Below are positions 48,965 to 57,186 of a DNA stretch of 64,000 nt, piece by piece. This DNA comes from Candidatus Avelusimicrobium pullarium. Lineage in GTDB: Bacteria; Elusimicrobiota; Elusimicrobia; Elusimicrobiales; Elusimicrobiaceae. The translations under genes were made by a program, and so were the position numbers. The number at the start of each line of letters is the position of its first letter. The stretch's first letter is position 1. The notes under the pieces are model-generated. The model did no database searches and had not been told where the DNA came from. It saw only the letters and a list, made by a program, of their open reading frames with translations. Location: positions 434,001 through 498,000 of the forward strand of contig CALUTQ010000002.1 of assembly GCA_944323745.1 (NCBI GenBank). Reading direction: 5' to 3'.

Positions 48965-49609
48965 TTACATTCGGTACTCCAAGCAATTGCCCGTACCGCC
49001 GGCACATAAACTGACGTCTGAAGTACCGACCAATTGCCCTCCCATACTTTTGATAAGGTTTTGTATTTCTTTATTACCGGCTCTTGCCGTACAGATGGTT
49101 TCAGAAGGATGTTGTCTGTAATAAGGAGTATTGCTAACGGCCCCCTCCAAGCCACGGTAACAATGCACAATATTGTCATTACTCCAAGAAAGCCAGGCGT
49201 TTACATAGGTTCGACTAATGCGAAAACCACCTGTTGTCCCAATTTGTGTCCCACCGTACGAACCGCCAAAGCGGCATTTGTCGTTTAGTGCCTGGTAATC
49301 TTCGGTAGAGCCGTCATCGTGCACAGGATGAGCACAGGAGAACTGCCAGTCCAATTCGTCAAAACGGTAGGCATAGCGGCCATTGGCCATATAGTACATT
49401 TCCTGCGCTTTTTTTAAGCCGTCCAAATACACAAACACCTGCGCCATCTGGGCGTGACGCACGCTTTTTTGATATTGCGGCAAAGCCACTGCCGCCAATA
49501 TGCCGATAATCAGCACCACCACCAGAAGCTCAATAAGCGTAAAACCGCCAAAAAGACTCTTTACGCGTGTTTTACCGTCGGATGTCTTTTTTTGATAAAT
49601 TTTGCTCAT
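48965..49609 (-). CDS. Type IV pilin-like protein E
   Basis: 214 residues, the largest pilin here. Leader [19 protein letters not shown], processing [12 protein letters not shown], Glu5, [15 protein letters not shown] and [17 protein letters not shown]. Several cysteines in the C-terminal domain ([28 protein letters not shown]) imply two disulfides. The T12 promoter and start-codon palindrome match copies A-C although the gene is 24 kb away, so these genes are probably co-regulated. Confidence 0.93.
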
Positions 49610-49643
49610 AGGCAAAATTTATCAAAAAAAAAAAACAAATCAA
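49593..49643 (-). promoter_or_regulatory. Pilin promoter with T12 spacer and start-codon palindrome (copy E)
   Basis: -35 TTGATT 49638-49643, twelve Ts 49624-49635, -10 TAAATT 49616-49621 and ATG 49609-49607. Dyad arms 49593-49604 and 49613-49624 are perfect over 12 bp. Confidence 0.75.
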
Positions 49644-49714
49644 CCCCCCGCCTGCAGACACAAAAAAACAACGCAGCAGAAATGCTGCGTTGTTTTTACT
49701 GAAAAGAAAACCGA

Positions 49715-50260
49715 TTAATAAACGGAATTCCAGTCCCTCGTCGTCAACACAAAATGGACACGGCGGTTGGTCATACGTCCTTCTTTACTGGTGTCGAGCG
49801 TCAGCGGGCGGTCGGAGCCGTATGAATGAATGCGGATACGGTCGGCCAGTACGCCGCGGCTGACCAGATAGGACTTCATTGCCGAAGCGCGCGAAGCCCC
49901 CAGCCAATAGTTGTAGTCTTTATCGCCCACAATATCGGTATTGCCTTCAATAATCAGCTTCATACTGGGGTGGGCATTAAGCACATTGGCCAATTTGTCC
50001 AAAAACTCGTATGAATAATCGGGCGGGCGGATAGAGTCAAATTTATACGTAATGTCGGGCAGTTTCATACTGTCGGCCATTTCGGCTTCCGTCTGGGCCA
50101 GCAGTTTGGCATTTTTGTCGGCCTCAATTTTAATAATCGGGTCCCGCTCCGGCAGACGCGGGATATCGGCTTCTTCCACTTCCGCCGGCCGGTTGGAAGC
50201 ACAGGCGGCCAGCAGCAGGGCAAACATTCCGACGGACAAGCATTTAAAAATTTTCTTCAT
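49715..50260 (-). CDS. OmpA/Pal-like lipoprotein
   Basis: 181 residues. Lipobox LLAAC after a 19-residue signal. The C-terminal OmpA domain carries LIIEGNTDIVGDKDYNYWLG, ASRASAMKSYLVSRGV and the late R in MTNRRVHFVL, the peptidoglycan-binding pattern. It probably links the outer membrane to the cell wall. GGAGGAA precedes the ATG. Lies next to the DnaA-box region. Confidence 0.92.
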   Translation of the reverse strand: MKKIFKCLSVGMFALLLAACASNRPAEVEEADIPRLPERDPIIKIEADKNAKLLAQTEAEMADSMKLPDITYKFDSIRPPDYSYEFLDKLANVLNAHPSMKLIIEGNTDIVGDKDYNYWLGASRASAMKSYLVSRGVLADRIRIHSYGSDRPLTLDTSKEGRMTNRRVHFVLTTRDWNSVY

Positions 50261-50677
50261 TGTTCCTCCTTATCGTTACCGGCTGTGCCAAAACGCACGC
50301 CAATAAGGCAAAATACTCTTTTCAAGATTATAGCAAAACCTTTCCCACATAAAGCAAATAAAACATTTTTTATAACTTATCAGATTTATCCACAAGATGT
50401 GGAAAACCTGTGGATAACCTGCCTTTTACTCTACAAAAACGCGGTCCGAAAAAATTTTTAACGGTCAATTGGGCTTTTGTGTCCGCAAAGCTGTGGATAA
50501 CCCGCAAAAACTGTGGATAACTCTGCTTTTGTATAGCTAAAATTTAATTTTTCGGGCGTAAGCTCCGTCGGAGAAATGCTCTTTAGGCACTTTTTACGCT
50601 TTTTGGGGCCTTTTTAAAAAAACTGTTGACAAGTTGCAAAAATTTTATCTCAAAAACGCCCAAAAAGCCTTTTTTGC
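50261..50677. other. Intergenic DnaA-box cluster, candidate origin of replication
   Basis: Four perfect boxes TTATCCACA: plus strand 50386-50394; minus strand 50409-50417, 50492-50500 and 50512-50520. A one-mismatch box lies at 50398-50406. A fifth perfect box is at 50715-50723, inside the 3' end of the esterase gene. The region is A+T-rich with blocks near 50450-50460, 50538-50552 and 50611-50650 that could unwind. No gene is seen. dnaA and dnaN are not in the window. Confidence 0.6.
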
Positions 50678-51640
50678 TTATTTTTTAAGCCTGATTTTGG
50701 CTTTAAATTGTTTTTTATCCACAGAACCGCTTATTTTGACTTTTCCGGCCGCCGCACCCGAAATAGGGGCCAACGTGCCCGCAGCGGCATTCCAGTCCAA
50801 ATAATGCGGGCTTATGCGCAAAGAAAGCGGAATATAATCAAACACCTTTCCGTTTTTAAGCGTGGCCTGCACACGCAGGCGGGCGGAGTTATCTTCATTT
50901 AAATACAAGACCTCCGGCTCCGTCCGGCTTTTCAGTTTTTTTACGCTAAGCTGTTCTGCCGGCGCAAATAAATAATCTAAATCTATGGCTTCGGGCAATT
51001 TGGCAAAGTCGCCCAAAACCGTTACATAGTCCGGCCCATACACACGATTCATATCCTGCAGGGTTTGCTGCCATACGGCGGCCTGTTCCTGCTCTCCGGC
51101 CAGCAGCACACGCAAACCGGCCGCCGCACCGGCCAACGACACCGGCTCGGTACCGCCGTTTAAAATAATCGCTTTGGTAAAAAGTTCTTTTTTGGCCAGC
51201 AATGCCGCCAAGGCTTTGGCACCCGTCGGGCCGGCAGCCGCCACACCGCGCCAGGCCGGGCTGTCTTTTGTTAAATAGTTGACGTCAATATACGGCACCA
51301 ACTCACGGGAAATAAAAGCGGCTATTTTATCCGTATCAGCCAGTTCCGTTTCGTCAAAATTAATGCCTACCAAAATGGCTTTTTGCGTATGGCGGTCCAA
51401 ACACGCCTGCACGGCAGGTGCGTCTTTGGGGATGGCCCCCAGCAAATACACCACCGGATAGTGTTTGCTCAGCGGAATGGCGGGTTCCGGCAGAAAAACG
51501 GTGACCGTTTTGTCGTTGCCCATAATGGCGGAAGGAAAATTTAAAAAAGTTTCACGTCCGGGGTTAATCAGCATCAAAGGCTCGCCGCAAAAGGCAAGCA
51601 CGGGCAGCAAAAAGGCTGCTAAAAGAAACAATTTTTTCAT
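50678..51640 (-). CDS. Exported esterase-like alpha/beta hydrolase, nucleophile apparently lost
   Basis: 320 residues. Signal peptide of about 18 residues (LAFCGEP). The layout follows the esterase D / Fes-like family: TVTVFLPEPAIPLSKHYPVV YLLG-type first strand, VGINFDETELADTD and ELVPYIDVNYLT. Where the family has the nucleophile elbow GxSxGG, this protein reads AAAGPTGAKALA with no serine. It is therefore probably not an ordinary serine esterase. A beta-rich C-terminal domain (from about residue 235) follows. TACAAT lies exactly 6 nt before the ATG (leaderless type). Confidence 0.75.
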   Translation of the reverse strand: MKKLFLLAAFLLPVLAFCGEPLMLINPGRETFLNFPSAIMGNDKTVTVFLPEPAIPLSKHYPVVYLLGAIPKDAPAVQACLDRHTQKAILVGINFDETELADTDKIAAFISRELVPYIDVNYLTKDSPAWRGVAAAGPTGAKALAALLAKKELFTKAIILNGGTEPVSLAGAAAGLRVLLAGEQEQAAVWQQTLQDMNRVYGPDYVTVLGDFAKLPEAIDLDYLFAPAEQLSVKKLKSRTEPEVLYLNEDNSARLRVQATLKNGKVFDYIPLSLRISPHYLDWNAAAGTLAPISGAAAGKVKISGSVDKKQFKAKIRLKK

Positions 51641-51652
51641 AAAAGTATTGTA

Positions 51653-51809
51653 ACAAAAAAACGCCGTTCTGTTTAGCCTATTTGGCCGGTTTTCACCGAC
51701 GTAGGCTGGGCCTTACGGCCCCCCGTCTTGGGCATCTTGGACGGCGTTTACCCGTTTCAGACCCAATGCTTTTGTGGGTCCAAAGACCCTTGTTTTGGCT
51801 GTTTCAAAC
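51653..51809 (-). ncRNA. Candidate structured RNA ending in an intrinsic terminator
   Basis: On the minus strand a TATACT (51821-51816) could start an RNA near 51809. Closing stem AACGCCGT (51748-51741) / ACGGCGTT (51667-51660) runs into seven Ts. Inside are TAGGCT/AGCCTA arms (51702-51707, 51675-51680) enclosing CGGT/ACCG, and GGGCC/GGCCC (51708-51712, 51717-51721). Another hairpin (GACCCA/TGGGTC, 51760-51780) lies 5' of it. No known RNA family recognised. Confidence 0.45.
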
Positions 51810-53652: not shown

Positions 53653-56600
53653 TTACCAAATAGACGAGTAAGTATCTTTTTTGAAACGAGTATTGCACTT
53701 TATGTTATTTCCGTTGCTGGGCTTTATATCGTCTATGTCAACGGAGCACAAGGCCTTAATATAAGCCTGCACATCCTCGTACGCTATCGTTCCGCCCAAG
53801 CCGCAAGAACCGGAAGGCTGGAAAACATTTTTGTATTTCTCGTGGTACTTGTTTCTGTTGTACGAATCCAAGGTCCTATTGGTAGATATTTTACCCATCG
53901 TGTCCTCATCCCAGGCTTCAGCACGCTGGAACTTAACCTCGCTGGCTATTGCCTTGAGCGGGAAGTCTTTCCAAACCCCAGCAGCCAAGACGGCTTCAAA
54001 AGGCTGGCGATCCGTTTGGATAGACGCCAAGTCTCCCAGCTTTTGATAGTTCCAGTTATAGTGACCATAGTGGTATTTCTTGTTCTGCTTGACTTCTGCT
54101 CCGCCATCGCAGCCGTAGAAACGCTTATCCAGAACCGTCTTGCCGTTTTCCTTTTTATACAGCGCAGGGAAGAACGAAGAATCAGGGCCTACAAAGGCGG
54201 CAAAAGTACCAAACATATTATTGCCGTTCTCACCGTCTTTAGAGTTGGCGCCAATCGTCTTACCCAAGGCACACGCGGCATTTAACGCAAGCTCGCCTTT
54301 TACGATACTCATTGCATCCAGCAAGTTGGCTACCGTAATAGAATCTTCATCATATTGCAAGCTGTTGTTTTTGTCTTTGTTGGCCGCATTATACTTCTCT
54401 TGAGCGGATTTAAGCAGTGCCCTTACATCATCATCCACCGCCACCAACCGCTTGTTTTCTATATCCTTGAGCGAGGGGCAGACGCCAAAAGCCGGCATGT
54501 TCGGCGCAGGCGTTTGCGCTAAACGAGCATTCACATCCAACAGTTCCGTATCATCTTGCGGAATAAACGGAATGCTGTTAAAGAAGCTCACCGTTTGAAA
54601 CGCAGGAGTCTGCTTGCCTTGCGGGCAATTCGGATCCGTTTTGACATAAGAGCCCCACGTTCCATTCTGTTGGCAAGTTCTCTGAATCTCGCATTTATCG
54701 CCGTCAACAGACGTTTCCGTTGCTCCAGGCGAGCACTGCGTCTGGGTGCTGGGCACCTGTTCCACCACATATTCGCCCAAATATTCCTCGGAGTCCATAG
54801 AAAGCTGGTCGCCGAAGCTCGCTTTCCACTTAGCGGTAATTCCGCCCGCCTCTGCGGCTTTAACCAACGCCTGGCGTTGGGAATCACTGAGCGGTTTAAA
54901 CTCATAAGTAGCCGTAGCCTGACCGCCGGCACTTTGGACGTTTCCGTCGTGTTTTACAGGGACGCCGACAATGCCTGCTTCCGGAATATCCAGCGTTACC
55001 TTAATATTGCCGGCCGTTTTACCGTGCACCTCCGGATCAAAGGTCAACGTGGCAGCAATGCTTTCCGGCGAATCAATCACCAAGGCCGTAATACGGAAAT
55101 TAGAGAAAGAACACGCCGTTCTGATGGCATTTTCTTTTCCGTCATTGGCCATTGCCGTTCTGCTGGAGCCGTCAACTCCGCGGACCGTACCGGCATAGCG
55201 GCGGGTTTTGTCTTTAAATTTCTCCGTATCTTTAGACAAATTGCCTTTGCGCAAAACATAATATGTTTCAAAGTCAGCATACGTGATGGGCAATACGTCC
55301 ACCGGCATATTCTTGACCTTGACCTGATTATGCTCCGCGTCTTCAGACAGATTTTTACCCTTGGAAAGCTTATTCTTCATTGCATAGCCTTCAATAAAGT
55401 ACAAATGCAAGGCGCTAAAAGCTTCTTCGGGGGAAACTTCCTGCCCGTCTTTGGTCAAACCCAAGCCGCTCAGTACATTCATCGTCTTGGCTTTAAAGTC
55501 CATCCAGTCAAACACACTGCTTTCCGCCACATAAATTACACAAGAATCATTAACGTCGTTGCGCTGCAAGTCATCGTAAAGACCTCCGGCGTAACTGCTT
55601 CTTGCTTTTTTCGTCGCATCAAACTGTCTGACGTCGGATTCACCGCCATTGGCTTTCTCACCGGCGGCAACACTTTGTTTGTTGGGGTTCTTTTTGCCAA
55701 TGCCGCACAAATAATGAGAGCCGTTGTTGTCAAACGGAACGTAGTTTTTGACAACCACTGCAATATACTTATTCCATTTCCCCGCTTTGCCATTGGCCTG
55801 CAGTTCAAAATTGCGGGTAGTGTCAACTGCTTGGCAGTTAAAGCGGTCTCTTAACTGAGCAGGCCCCCGTGAGGCAAGTCCGTTTCCAAACACGCCATTG
55901 CTTAAGCAGTCAATACGGGCGGCAATAGGCCCTAAGTTTTGCCCGCCTTCTTTGCCTTCTTTCCACGGGTCTTGTATGCCGTCTTTCACTTTATAGCCAT
56001 AGAAAGCGCGGCACTGGTCTTTATTGAAAGGAATAGTAGGATAAGCCACTTTCCAATCAGCTTCTTCCAAACCACCGCACTCAGCCGGTTTTCCATAGCC
56101 TTCTCTTACACCCAAGAAGCGCCCTGCCGTGCAGTCATCGGTGCCCATCACTACGCAGCAGCCAAGGTTTGTTGCTGCCGTAGCCAAGGCTTGAATAAGC
56201 GGCTCTACCAGGTTTTTTCTCCACAGGAAGTATTTCCATTCCCAGGCTTTCTGCGAGCGTTCCTTCATCATATCCCACCACCAAGGAGTCATACCTTTGT
56301 AGTCAATGACGTGTTCCATCTTGCCCGCTCCGCTACCGGGAGCAAACTCACCCGTGCCGATACCGCCGAGGCGGCCGGTTTCCACCGGTTTGAACATAGC
56401 GTCGCGCAGCGCTTGTGCGGCATTTGCTTTGCTTAAGGCATCGCGGGACGCACGTGCCTGAGCGGCACTGCCCTGCCCAAAATAAGAACGGGACGGCGTA
56501 TCCGCCGCGCGCAACGGCTGCAAAGACACCGGTTTGGTGCCTTGTCTGGGCCCGCCGGAAGAATCTTCTCTGGCGGCCGCTTTCAGGTTAGCCCCGCCGA

Positions 56601-57186
56601 AACGGCCAAAACCGGCACCGCCGCCGCTGGCACGCGTCATAGACGCAGAGCCCAGCTCGTTAATCTTGGTGGCTTGGCGCTGGAAAGCCGCGCGGGTGGC
56701 AGGGGGTACCGTTTGACGATAATCGGAAGCAGGCGGGGTATAGGTGTCTTCCAACCCGTCTCTGCTGCTGAAGTCTTCATACGGCGGCAAAACGTCTGCT
56801 TCCTCCTCCTCATCGCTTCCCCAGCCTTTAATCAAGCTAAACGGATCACGCCCCGTTAACTGGGCGATTTGTCCGTTCGGATCCTCCACGCTGGGTTCAT
56901 ACCCAAAGCGTTCGGGGTCGAAAATAGTGTCCTCTGAACCGGGAGGAATGATGGGTTCCTCATTCATACTGCCGCTGTACTTGTACAGGAACGGAAGCAT
57001 CAGCAAAGCGGCGGCGGCAGCCACAAAGAAAGGCGCGTCACGCTTGGTGCGTTCAAACAACGTCTTTTTGGGCTTGCCGTTGCTGCCGATTTTGGAGGAA
57101 ACACGCTTAGAGAACGGATTAAAAGCAGGCTTGCTGTTTTTAATCTTATCGCTAAACGTGAATGAATCCTTTTTATTCTCAGGCAT
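53653..57186 (-). CDS. Large membrane-anchored protein, operon gene 6
   Basis: 1177 residues. Cytosolic basic N terminus, one membrane helix (about 50-70, FFVAAAAALLMLPFLYKYSG), then an acidic/Pro-rich stretch (GSDEEEEADVLPPYEDF) and a Ser/Gly/Ala-rich region with INELGSASMTRASGGGAGF and LGGIGTGEF. The remaining 850 residues are periplasmic and contain many spaced cysteines, suggesting disulfides (CCVVMGTDDC, CEIQRTCQQNGTW, GSCGLGG). No family recognised. The motifs RASG and ALRDAM...LGGI recur in the products at 59097 and 60612, so these are probably parts of one assembly. Confidence 0.75.
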   Translation of the reverse strand: MPENKKDSFTFSDKIKNSKPAFNPFSKRVSSKIGSNGKPKKTLFERTKRDAPFFVAAAAALLMLPFLYKYSGSMNEEPIIPPGSEDTIFDPERFGYEPSVEDPNGQIAQLTGRDPFSLIKGWGSDEEEEADVLPPYEDFSSRDGLEDTYTPPASDYRQTVPPATRAAFQRQATKINELGSASMTRASGGGAGFGRFGGANLKAAAREDSSGGPRQGTKPVSLQPLRAADTPSRSYFGQGSAAQARASRDALSKANAAQALRDAMFKPVETGRLGGIGTGEFAPGSGAGKMEHVIDYKGMTPWWWDMMKERSQKAWEWKYFLWRKNLVEPLIQALATAATNLGCCVVMGTDDCTAGRFLGVREGYGKPAECGGLEEADWKVAYPTIPFNKDQCRAFYGYKVKDGIQDPWKEGKEGGQNLGPIAARIDCLSNGVFGNGLASRGPAQLRDRFNCQAVDTTRNFELQANGKAGKWNKYIAVVVKNYVPFDNNGSHYLCGIGKKNPNKQSVAAGEKANGGESDVRQFDATKKARSSYAGGLYDDLQRNDVNDSCVIYVAESSVFDWMDFKAKTMNVLSGLGLTKDGQEVSPEEAFSALHLYFIEGYAMKNKLSKGKNLSEDAEHNQVKVKNMPVDVLPITYADFETYYVLRKGNLSKDTEKFKDKTRRYAGTVRGVDGSSRTAMANDGKENAIRTACSFSNFRITALVIDSPESIAATLTFDPEVHGKTAGNIKVTLDIPEAGIVGVPVKHDGNVQSAGGQATATYEFKPLSDSQRQALVKAAEAGGITAKWKASFGDQLSMDSEEYLGEYVVEQVPSTQTQCSPGATETSVDGDKCEIQRTCQQNGTWGSYVKTDPNCPQGKQTPAFQTVSFFNSIPFIPQDDTELLDVNARLAQTPAPNMPAFGVCPSLKDIENKRLVAVDDDVRALLKSAQEKYNAANKDKNNSLQYDEDSITVANLLDAMSIVKGELALNAACALGKTIGANSKDGENGNNMFGTFAAFVGPDSSFFPALYKKENGKTVLDKRFYGCDGGAEVKQNKKYHYGHYNWNYQKLGDLASIQTDRQPFEAVLAAGVWKDFPLKAIASEVKFQRAEAWDEDTMGKISTNRTLDSYNRNKYHEKYKNVFQPSGSCGLGGTIAYEDVQAYIKALCSVDIDDIKPSNGNNIKCNTRFKKDTYSSIW

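What the first reader, a model, noticed from the sequence alone, without database searches (positions are those of the whole stretch)
50386..50723. Cluster of five perfect DnaA boxes: candidate oriC
TTATCCACA occurs at 50386, 50409 (minus), 50492 (minus), 50512 (minus) and 50715, plus TTTTCCACA at 50398 (minus), within 340 bp of A+T-rich DNA lacking genes. A chance 9-mer cluster of this density is very unlikely. It could be the origin, or a DnaA-titration or DnaA-regulated site. The absence of dnaA/dnaN nearby does not exclude an origin.
Basis: partly seen in the sequence, partly recalled or inferred. Interest (0 to 1): 0.62.

Follow-up and report, generated by a model that had tools for sequence, protein, structure and literature searches.

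The report
Conserved DnaA-box array, not oriC
A tight cluster of binding sites for the replication starter protein DnaA sits about halfway along one chromosome arm in a family of mostly uncultured bacteria, keeps its layout across many species, is not where replication starts, and probably helps control when replication starts.

Summary
The boxes are real: five perfect TTATCCACA plus one TTTTCCACA at the stated coordinates, far above chance. It is not oriC. Own-genome GC skew flips from minus to plus at C1:221-225 kb, on dnaA. The cluster lies about 438 kb away, 54% along a replichore if the two contigs join head to tail. In the single-contig relative G090 dnaA is at base 889 and the array at 338.7 kb. 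Comparison shows an ordered array: a +,-,- triple, a -,- pair 20 nt apart, a weak box at about +132 and a distal + box. 48 of 58 same-genus genomes carry the triple, and 9 of the other 10 carry the array upstream of the same ompA-like gene. It recurs in other Elusimicrobiaceae, once away from that gene. The exact triple is otherwise an oriC module beside dnaA in Firmicutes. Best reading: an origin-like DnaA assembly site outside the origin, controlling the DnaA pool (datA/DARS/DnaA-box-cluster class). Binding and function are untested; regulation of the ompA-like gene remains the main rival.

The parts
50386..50394 (+). DnaA box 1 (TTATCCACA), first of the +,-,- triple
   Evidence: mean pairwise identity 0.95 over 21 rows; within 2 mismatches in 47 of 49 same-genus arrays
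50398..50406 (-). DnaA box 2 (TTTTCCACA here; TTATCCACA in many relatives), facing box 1 with a 3-bp gap
50409..50417 (-). DnaA box 3, 2-bp gap after box 2
50427..50435 (.). TACTCTACA, conserved 9-mer of unknown role next to the triple
   Evidence: alignment; mean pairwise identity 0.82
50492..50500 (-). DnaA box 4, first of the pair spaced 20 nt start to start
50512..50520 (-). DnaA box 5, second of the pair
50565..50571 (.). CCGTCGG near-palindrome, conserved, role unknown
   Evidence: identity 0.81
50624..50632 (-). weak DnaA box (TTGTCAACA on minus; TTGTCCACA in G231, G184, G113, G260, G009)
   Evidence: identical in 21 of 21 aligned rows; within 2 mismatches at +130 to +138 in 48 of 49 arrays; TTGTCCACA forms seen
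50715..50723 (+). DnaA box 6, inside the 3' end of the esterase-like gene
   Evidence: within 2 mismatches in 35 of 49 arrays
50327..50334 (-). ATTATAGC (TATAAT-type -10 on minus), likely promoter of the ompA-like gene
   Evidence: 21 of 21 identical, 61 alignment; promoter role inferred
49715..50260 (-). OmpA-family lipoprotein gene, usual left neighbour of the array
   Evidence: PF00691 E=3.8e-14; adjacent in 20 of 20 relatives; lipoprotein signal read from the sequence
50678..51640 (-). esterase-like gene, usual right neighbour
   Evidence: PF00756 E=5.1e-7; adjacent in 20 of 20 relatives

Best explanation
It is a non-origin DnaA-binding control locus: a roughly 340-bp array of six strong and at least one weak DnaA box with fixed order, orientation and spacing, kept about mid-way along a replichore. 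Shown by computation: the boxes, their conserved geometry, the conserved locus, and that it is not at the replication origin. Inferred: DnaA (canonical, with its box-binding domain) binds and forms an ordered, perhaps looped, oligomer there, and when the fork duplicates the locus the free or ATP-bound DnaA pool changes, which sets initiation timing at the dnaA-linked origin. I think the most likely mode is a sink or inactivating platform (like datA or the Bacillus DnaA-box clusters), with reactivation of ADP-DnaA (like DARS) next. HU may bend the roughly 98 bp between box 1 and the pair (speculative).
For: Perfect-box cluster far beyond chance. Boxes 1-5 and the weak box are 93-100% identical pairwise over 21 species, against 43% for spacers and 27% expected from composition. 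Triple in 48 of 58 same-genus genomes, reversed control 0; 9 of the remaining 10 have the array upstream of ompA. Inter-box offsets vary by only a few bases in most genomes while flanking proteins differ widely (esterase 34-84% identical). The same geometry in other genera. Single-contig genome G090: densest TTATCMACA cluster of the genome, at 0.206 of the genome from dnaA. Same orientation relative to skew in 4 of 4 genomes checked. In G204 the array has other neighbours (Fe-ADH, tRNA-Ser, fmt), so it is not simply part of the ompA gene. The exact triple is used at oriC, beside dnaA, in Firmicutes, so such a layout plausibly supports DnaA assembly. DnaA here is canonical: DnaA_N, AAA+ and DnaA_C. 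E. coli DARS1/2 cores share the +,-,- order.
Against: No binding, footprint or mutant data exist here. The array sits upstream of the ompA-like gene in nearly all cases, so local transcription control is not excluded. Three genomes with that ompA-like gene (G073, G254, G139) show no strong box cluster upstream and no such pair within 2 mismatches anywhere, so the array is dispensable in some lineages. G204 is a single MAG contig with a slightly different pair. Triple gaps are 3 and 2, not the 5 and 3 of DARS, and most other-genus (g12) arrays lack box 3 and often box 2. One HU/IHF-family protein per genome does not show that IHF exists. TTATCMACA counts in own genome (38) are no higher than the reversed control (36).
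Confidence: 0.6

Rival explanations
1. DnaA-regulated promoter: the array lets DnaA switch the ompA-like lipoprotein gene (and perhaps the esterase gene) with the cell cycle.
For: Array is upstream of the ompA-like gene in 20 of 20 loci and at most further loci; a TATAAT-type -10 is identical in 21 of 21 rows; the -10 to array distance falls mainly at about -144, -156 and -166, roughly one helical turn apart, though this may only reflect clades.
Against: Array-to-gene distance varies widely (first upstream box 57 to 258 bp; -10 offset down to -282) while inter-box spacing is nearly fixed; one genome keeps the array without the gene beside it; some keep the gene without the array; the array extends into the esterase gene.
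Confidence: 0.22
2. Replication origin, either the main one or a second or dormant one.
For: Same exact triple is an oriC module next to dnaA in at least 58 of 70 non-Elusimicrobia loci; A+T-rich; boxes denser than at dnaA.
Against: Skew flips at dnaA; skew keeps one sign around the array in G000, G016:C1, G035:C1 and G090; replichores of 807 and 809 kb balance on a dnaA-linked origin under the head-to-tail contig order; dnaA-side boxes are conserved too.
Confidence: 0.06
3. True DARS: the array reactivates ADP-DnaA by the head-to-head box I/II mechanism of E. coli (a sub-case of the DnaA-pool class, so this number overlaps with the best explanation).
For: Same box order and orientation as DARS1 and DARS2 cores; fraction of genome from the origin is 0.21 in G090 and 0.27 here, near the 0.21 that PMC5010248 gives for a DARS2 insertion at the same relative distance from oriC as the wild-type site (passages).
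Against: Gaps 3 and 2 instead of 5 and 3; box 3 and often box 2 missing in most g12 arrays; the same triple is an oriC module elsewhere; Fis and IHF sites not tested.
Confidence: 0.2
4. Binding site of another protein, or chance.
For: TACTCTACA and CCGWCGG are conserved too and are not evident DnaA boxes.
Against: The repeated unit is the textbook DnaA consensus and statistics exclude chance.
Confidence: 0.03

Closest known systems
E. coli DARS1 / DARS2
   Same: Non-coding DnaA-box locus far from oriC; three-box core in order +,-,-
   Different: Gaps 3/2 instead of 5/3; extra 20-nt tandem pair and distal box; no DNA similarity claimed; no IHF/Fis sites shown
E. coli datA
   Same: Non-coding, strong-box cluster outside oriC
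   Different: Box layout differs: in the fetched datA region boxes within one mismatch lie at 2178+, 2245+, 2407+, 2419- of L359
B. subtilis DnaA-box clusters outside oriC
   Same: Multiple boxes in clusters away from the origin; removal of six gives early initiation (PMC5295017 and PMC13220808, passages)
   Different: The cited primary paper calls them oriC-proximal (title seen in the reference list; paper not read); one array per genome here, mid-replichore, with fixed geometry
Firmicutes oriC upstream of dnaA
   Same: Identical triple TTATCCACA-N3-TGTGGATAA-N2-TGTGGATAA
   Different: There it adjoins dnaA; here it is hundreds of kb from dnaA and from the skew minimum

Membership tests
Chromosomal oriC | Lies at the GC-skew minimum | tested here: not met
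   Skew sign switch at C1:221-225 kb (dnaA), array in uniformly negative skew; same conclusion in G090
Chromosomal oriC | Cluster of DnaA boxes in A+T-rich DNA | tested here: met
Chromosomal oriC | Replication starts there (coverage peak, nascent strands) | not testable with these tools
   No reads available
E. coli-type DARS | Three-box core in order +,-,- | tested here: met
   absent from most g12 arrays
E. coli-type DARS | Core spacing of DARS1/DARS2 (5 and 3 bp) | tested here: not met
   3 and 2 bp here
E. coli-type DARS | Promotes ADP release from DnaA | not testable with these tools
   Needs biochemistry
E. coli-type DARS | IHF and Fis sites (DARS2) | not tested
   One HU/IHF-family protein per genome; sites not modelled
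datA | Box layout of datA | tested here: not met
datA | Promotes DnaA-ATP hydrolysis with IHF | not testable with these tools
   Needs biochemistry
DnaA-box cluster outside oriC (general class) | Several strong DnaA boxes, mainly intergenic, away from the origin | tested here: met
DnaA-box cluster outside oriC (general class) | Binds DnaA in the cell and affects initiation timing | not testable with these tools
   Needs ChIP and mutants

The most novel reading that the evidence does not exclude
Elusimicrobiaceae carry a dedicated, origin-like DnaA array, one per genome and mid-replichore, built from oriC-type modules, which acts as a replication timer with a mechanism distinct from datA and DARS: a DnaA-control locus of its own kind outside the Proteobacteria.
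Probability: 0.3. Interest if true: 0.75.

Novelty: new variant of a known kind. Interest (0 to 1): 0.5.

Why it matters
Chromosomal loci that control DnaA are best known from E. coli and its relatives, and a 2026 review says datA and DARS are absent from B. subtilis and that nucleotide-state regulators there are unknown (PMC13220808, passages). A rigid, conserved DnaA array mid-replichore in another phylum would show that such timers arose more widely, and it makes sharp, testable predictions about box order and spacing. If G090 is Elusimicrobium minutum Pei191, as its recalled size suggests, a cultured organism carries it.

Tried and rejected
oriC reading: rejected on skew and dnaA position. 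Rfam over 49600-51800: three matches, all below gathering score and none overlapping the array, so no known RNA. Strict DARS membership: rejected on spacing. datA layout: not matched. A variable-gap triple search gave 25 of 294 genomes and added no clear second family. In G073, G254, G139 and G070 I looked for a relocated array and found no 20-nt pair; the box list was cut short by the tool, so smaller clusters in G070, G073 and G246 were not fully read. Five of 70 non-Elusimicrobia triple loci were not resolved as oriC (L182, L202, L204, L211, L217). One search used overlapping search windows for boxes 2 and 3, so its box 2 counts are unreliable and are not used. Rows dropped: 7 of 65 genomes had no qualifying pair (G006, a G001 fragment, G073, G254, G139, G164, G162). 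A DARS biochemistry paper was not held.

Full report
Observation. The six sites exist as described. The window holds six perfect boxes against 0.28 expected, and no shuffle of 100 reached that. The genome (G000, 1,615,768 bases, two contigs) holds 26 perfect boxes, with 24 for the reversed control, so boxes are not generally enriched; five of the 26 lie within 338 bp here. The Poisson chance is about 1.4e-14 for one such stretch and about 2e-8 over all start positions. The DNA is 63% A+T against 50% for the window.

Not the origin. dnaA lies at C1:222 kb, with dnaN beside it and ParA- and ParB-like genes within 10 kb (names from reading the translations). GC skew was sampled in 40 stretches of 10 kb plus the window and refined around dnaA. 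It is negative in the samples up to C1:221 kb (one 2-kb step at 211 kb is slightly positive), positive from C1:223 kb, and changes back near C2:115 kb. With C1 and C2 joined head to tail this gives arms of 809 and 807 kb. The join is my assumption; with C2 reversed the arms would be unequal but the minimum would still be at dnaA. The array at C2:484.4-484.7 kb is about 438 kb from dnaA, 54% of that arm, in negative skew on both sides. In relatives G016 (contig C1, 11 samples, all positive but one at -0.002) and G035 (contig C1, positive from 10 to 410 kb) the array also sits inside an arm. G090 is a single contig of 1,643,562 bases: dnaA at 889, skew positive from 1 to about 800 kb and negative from 900 kb, array at 338,694-338,884, 0.206 of the genome from dnaA. 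The orientation of the array relative to skew sign is the same in all 4 genomes checked (G000, G016, G035, G090). Boxes in and around dnaA, notably near the dnaA-dnaN gap, are themselves conserved in this genus.

Anatomy. A 21-row alignment (20 relatives found by the box pair, plus the window) shows boxes at about -106(+), -94(-), -83(-), 0(-), +20(-) and +223(+) relative to 50492. A further site, TGTTGACAA on the plus strand, is identical in all 21; it reads TGTGGACAA in G231, G184, G113, G260 and G009, which marks it as a weak DnaA box. Mean pairwise identity is 0.93-1.00 for boxes 1-5 and the weak box, 0.86 for box 6, 0.43 for spacers, 0.27 expected from composition. Two other motifs are conserved, TACTCTACA (0.82) and CCGWCGG (0.81); their role is unknown. 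ATTATAGC, a TATAAT-type -10 for the ompA-like gene, is identical in 21 of 21. In 49 same-genus arrays box 1 is within two mismatches in 47, box 3 in 48, the weak box in 48 and box 6 in 35. Many of these loci were found by the pair or the triple, so boxes used for finding them are present by construction; the 9 genomes reached through the ompA-like protein carry no such bias and show the same layout.

Distribution. The box pair with exactly 11 bp between occurs in 29 of 61 genomes, 29 of 37 in the same genus (own included) and 0 of 24 in the other family of the order. The triple, up to 3 mismatches, occurs in 52 of 294 phylum genomes: 48 of 58 same genus (own included), 1 of 21 other genera of the family, 0 of 46 in the other family of the order, and 3 of the remaining 169; reversed control 0. 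Of the 10 same-genus genomes without the triple, 9 have the array upstream of the ompA-like gene; the tenth, G033, has no close ompA match. The ompA-like and esterase-like neighbours flank the array in 20 of 20 relatives (HEAT gene 20 of 20, dUTPase 19 of 20, one contig ending early), although the esterase is only 34-84% identical. Loci named in the public collection with the same neighbours are titled Elusimicrobium, Elusimicrobiales or Elusimicrobiaceae, which places the lineage. Other genera: both g13 genomes (G090, G208); in g12, G063, G067, G095, G097, G101, G177, G248 and G258 at the ompA-like gene, G204 elsewhere; a weaker array in G168. No array was found in G073, G254 or G139, and no pair in G070, G246, G263 or G292 (these four loci were not read). 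In G204 the array lies between an iron-containing alcohol dehydrogenase gene and a tRNA-Ser plus fmt, with no close ompA match on that 14-kb contig. This is one MAG contig, so it is a pointer rather than proof that the array is independent of ompA.

The triple elsewhere. Ten are Elusimicrobia at the ompA locus. Of the other 70, 58 have dnaA or dnaN beside the triple, and 7 more have genes that I read as jag, yidC and rnpA, the usual dnaA neighbours (names from reading, not from a call). Five remain unresolved (L182, L202, L204, L211, L217). So this triple is an oriC module in Firmicutes, mostly Lachnospiraceae, that stands alone in Elusimicrobiaceae.

Comparison with DARS and datA. In E. coli MG1655 the DARS1 region has boxes +,-,- with gaps 5 and 3, and DARS2 the same. 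The DARS2 place is confirmed by primer text quoted in PMC4585315 (passage); the DARS1 place is recalled. DARS boxes I and II oppose each other and drive ADP release by head-to-head contact (PMC8682772, passages). Our triple has the same order and orientation but gaps 3 and 2, so I do not file it as a DARS. The datA region has a different layout (its place is recalled). The exact triple being an oriC module shows that the +,-,- order alone is not diagnostic of DARS. Removing six DnaA-box clusters in B. subtilis gives early initiation (PMC5295017 and PMC13220808, passages), and a section heading of PMC12371093 says DARS1, DARS2 and datA account for a large fraction of the E. coli chromosome's titration power (outline; one other section read).

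Mechanism. DnaA of this genome has the N-terminal, AAA+ and box-binding domains, so TTATCCACA should be its site (established for DnaA generally). A rigid layout over 330 bp with freely drifting spacers suggests a structured DnaA complex rather than loose binding. I put a DnaA-pool control locus at 0.6, split between sink or inactivation (more likely) and reactivation. The DARS-type rival listed at 0.2 is a sub-case of that class, so these two numbers overlap. Promoter control of the ompA-like gene is at 0.22; the variable array-to-gene distance and the G204 case weigh against it, but the near-constant neighbourhood weighs for it.

Novelty. Paper searches: 'Elusimicrobi' with 'DnaA box' gave 2 papers, neither on such a locus by title and abstract start; 'Elusimicrobium minutum' with 'origin of replication' gave 1; 'DnaA-reactivating sequence' with 'DARS' and 'phylum' gave 1 review; 'DARS-like' or 'datA-like' with DnaA gave 3 (listing only). 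None reports this element as far as those listings and passages show; subscription papers are mostly not held.

Noticed in passing
G000:C1:445337-448837 (minus), locus L357: A second DnaA-type AAA+ protein, 1166 aa, matches Bac_DnaA at residues 779-935 but has no DnaA_C box-binding domain. A large-frame second match occurs in nearly all genomes; in the other family of the order the frame is about 540-700 aa.
   Followed up: partly
G090:C1:1066269-1066715 and G067:C1:86947-87411: A third, short DnaA-type AAA+ protein (257 and 231 aa frames), Hda-like in size; only two DnaA-domain matches were found in own genome.
   Followed up: no
L109 (G022) 2508-2536 and G090:C1:1899-1928: A tandem box pair (20 nt apart in G022, 21 nt in G090) also lies on the dnaA-dnaN side in these genomes, so the array shares a module with the lineage's own origin region.
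   Followed up: partly
L182 and L204 (Armatimonadetes MAG LacPavin_0818_WC50_MAG_59_12): One MAG has two exact triples on two contigs with no dnaA match nearby.
   Followed up: no
window 50427-50435 and 50565-50571: TACTCTACA and CCGWCGG are conserved between the boxes and are not obvious DnaA boxes.
   Followed up: no
window 53653-57186 (minus): 1177-aa open frame with no Pfam match.
   Followed up: no
G204:C21:3956-4236 (L374): Array with the family geometry in a different gene context (Fe-ADH, tRNA-Ser, fmt), suggesting the array or the flanks have moved.
   Followed up: partly
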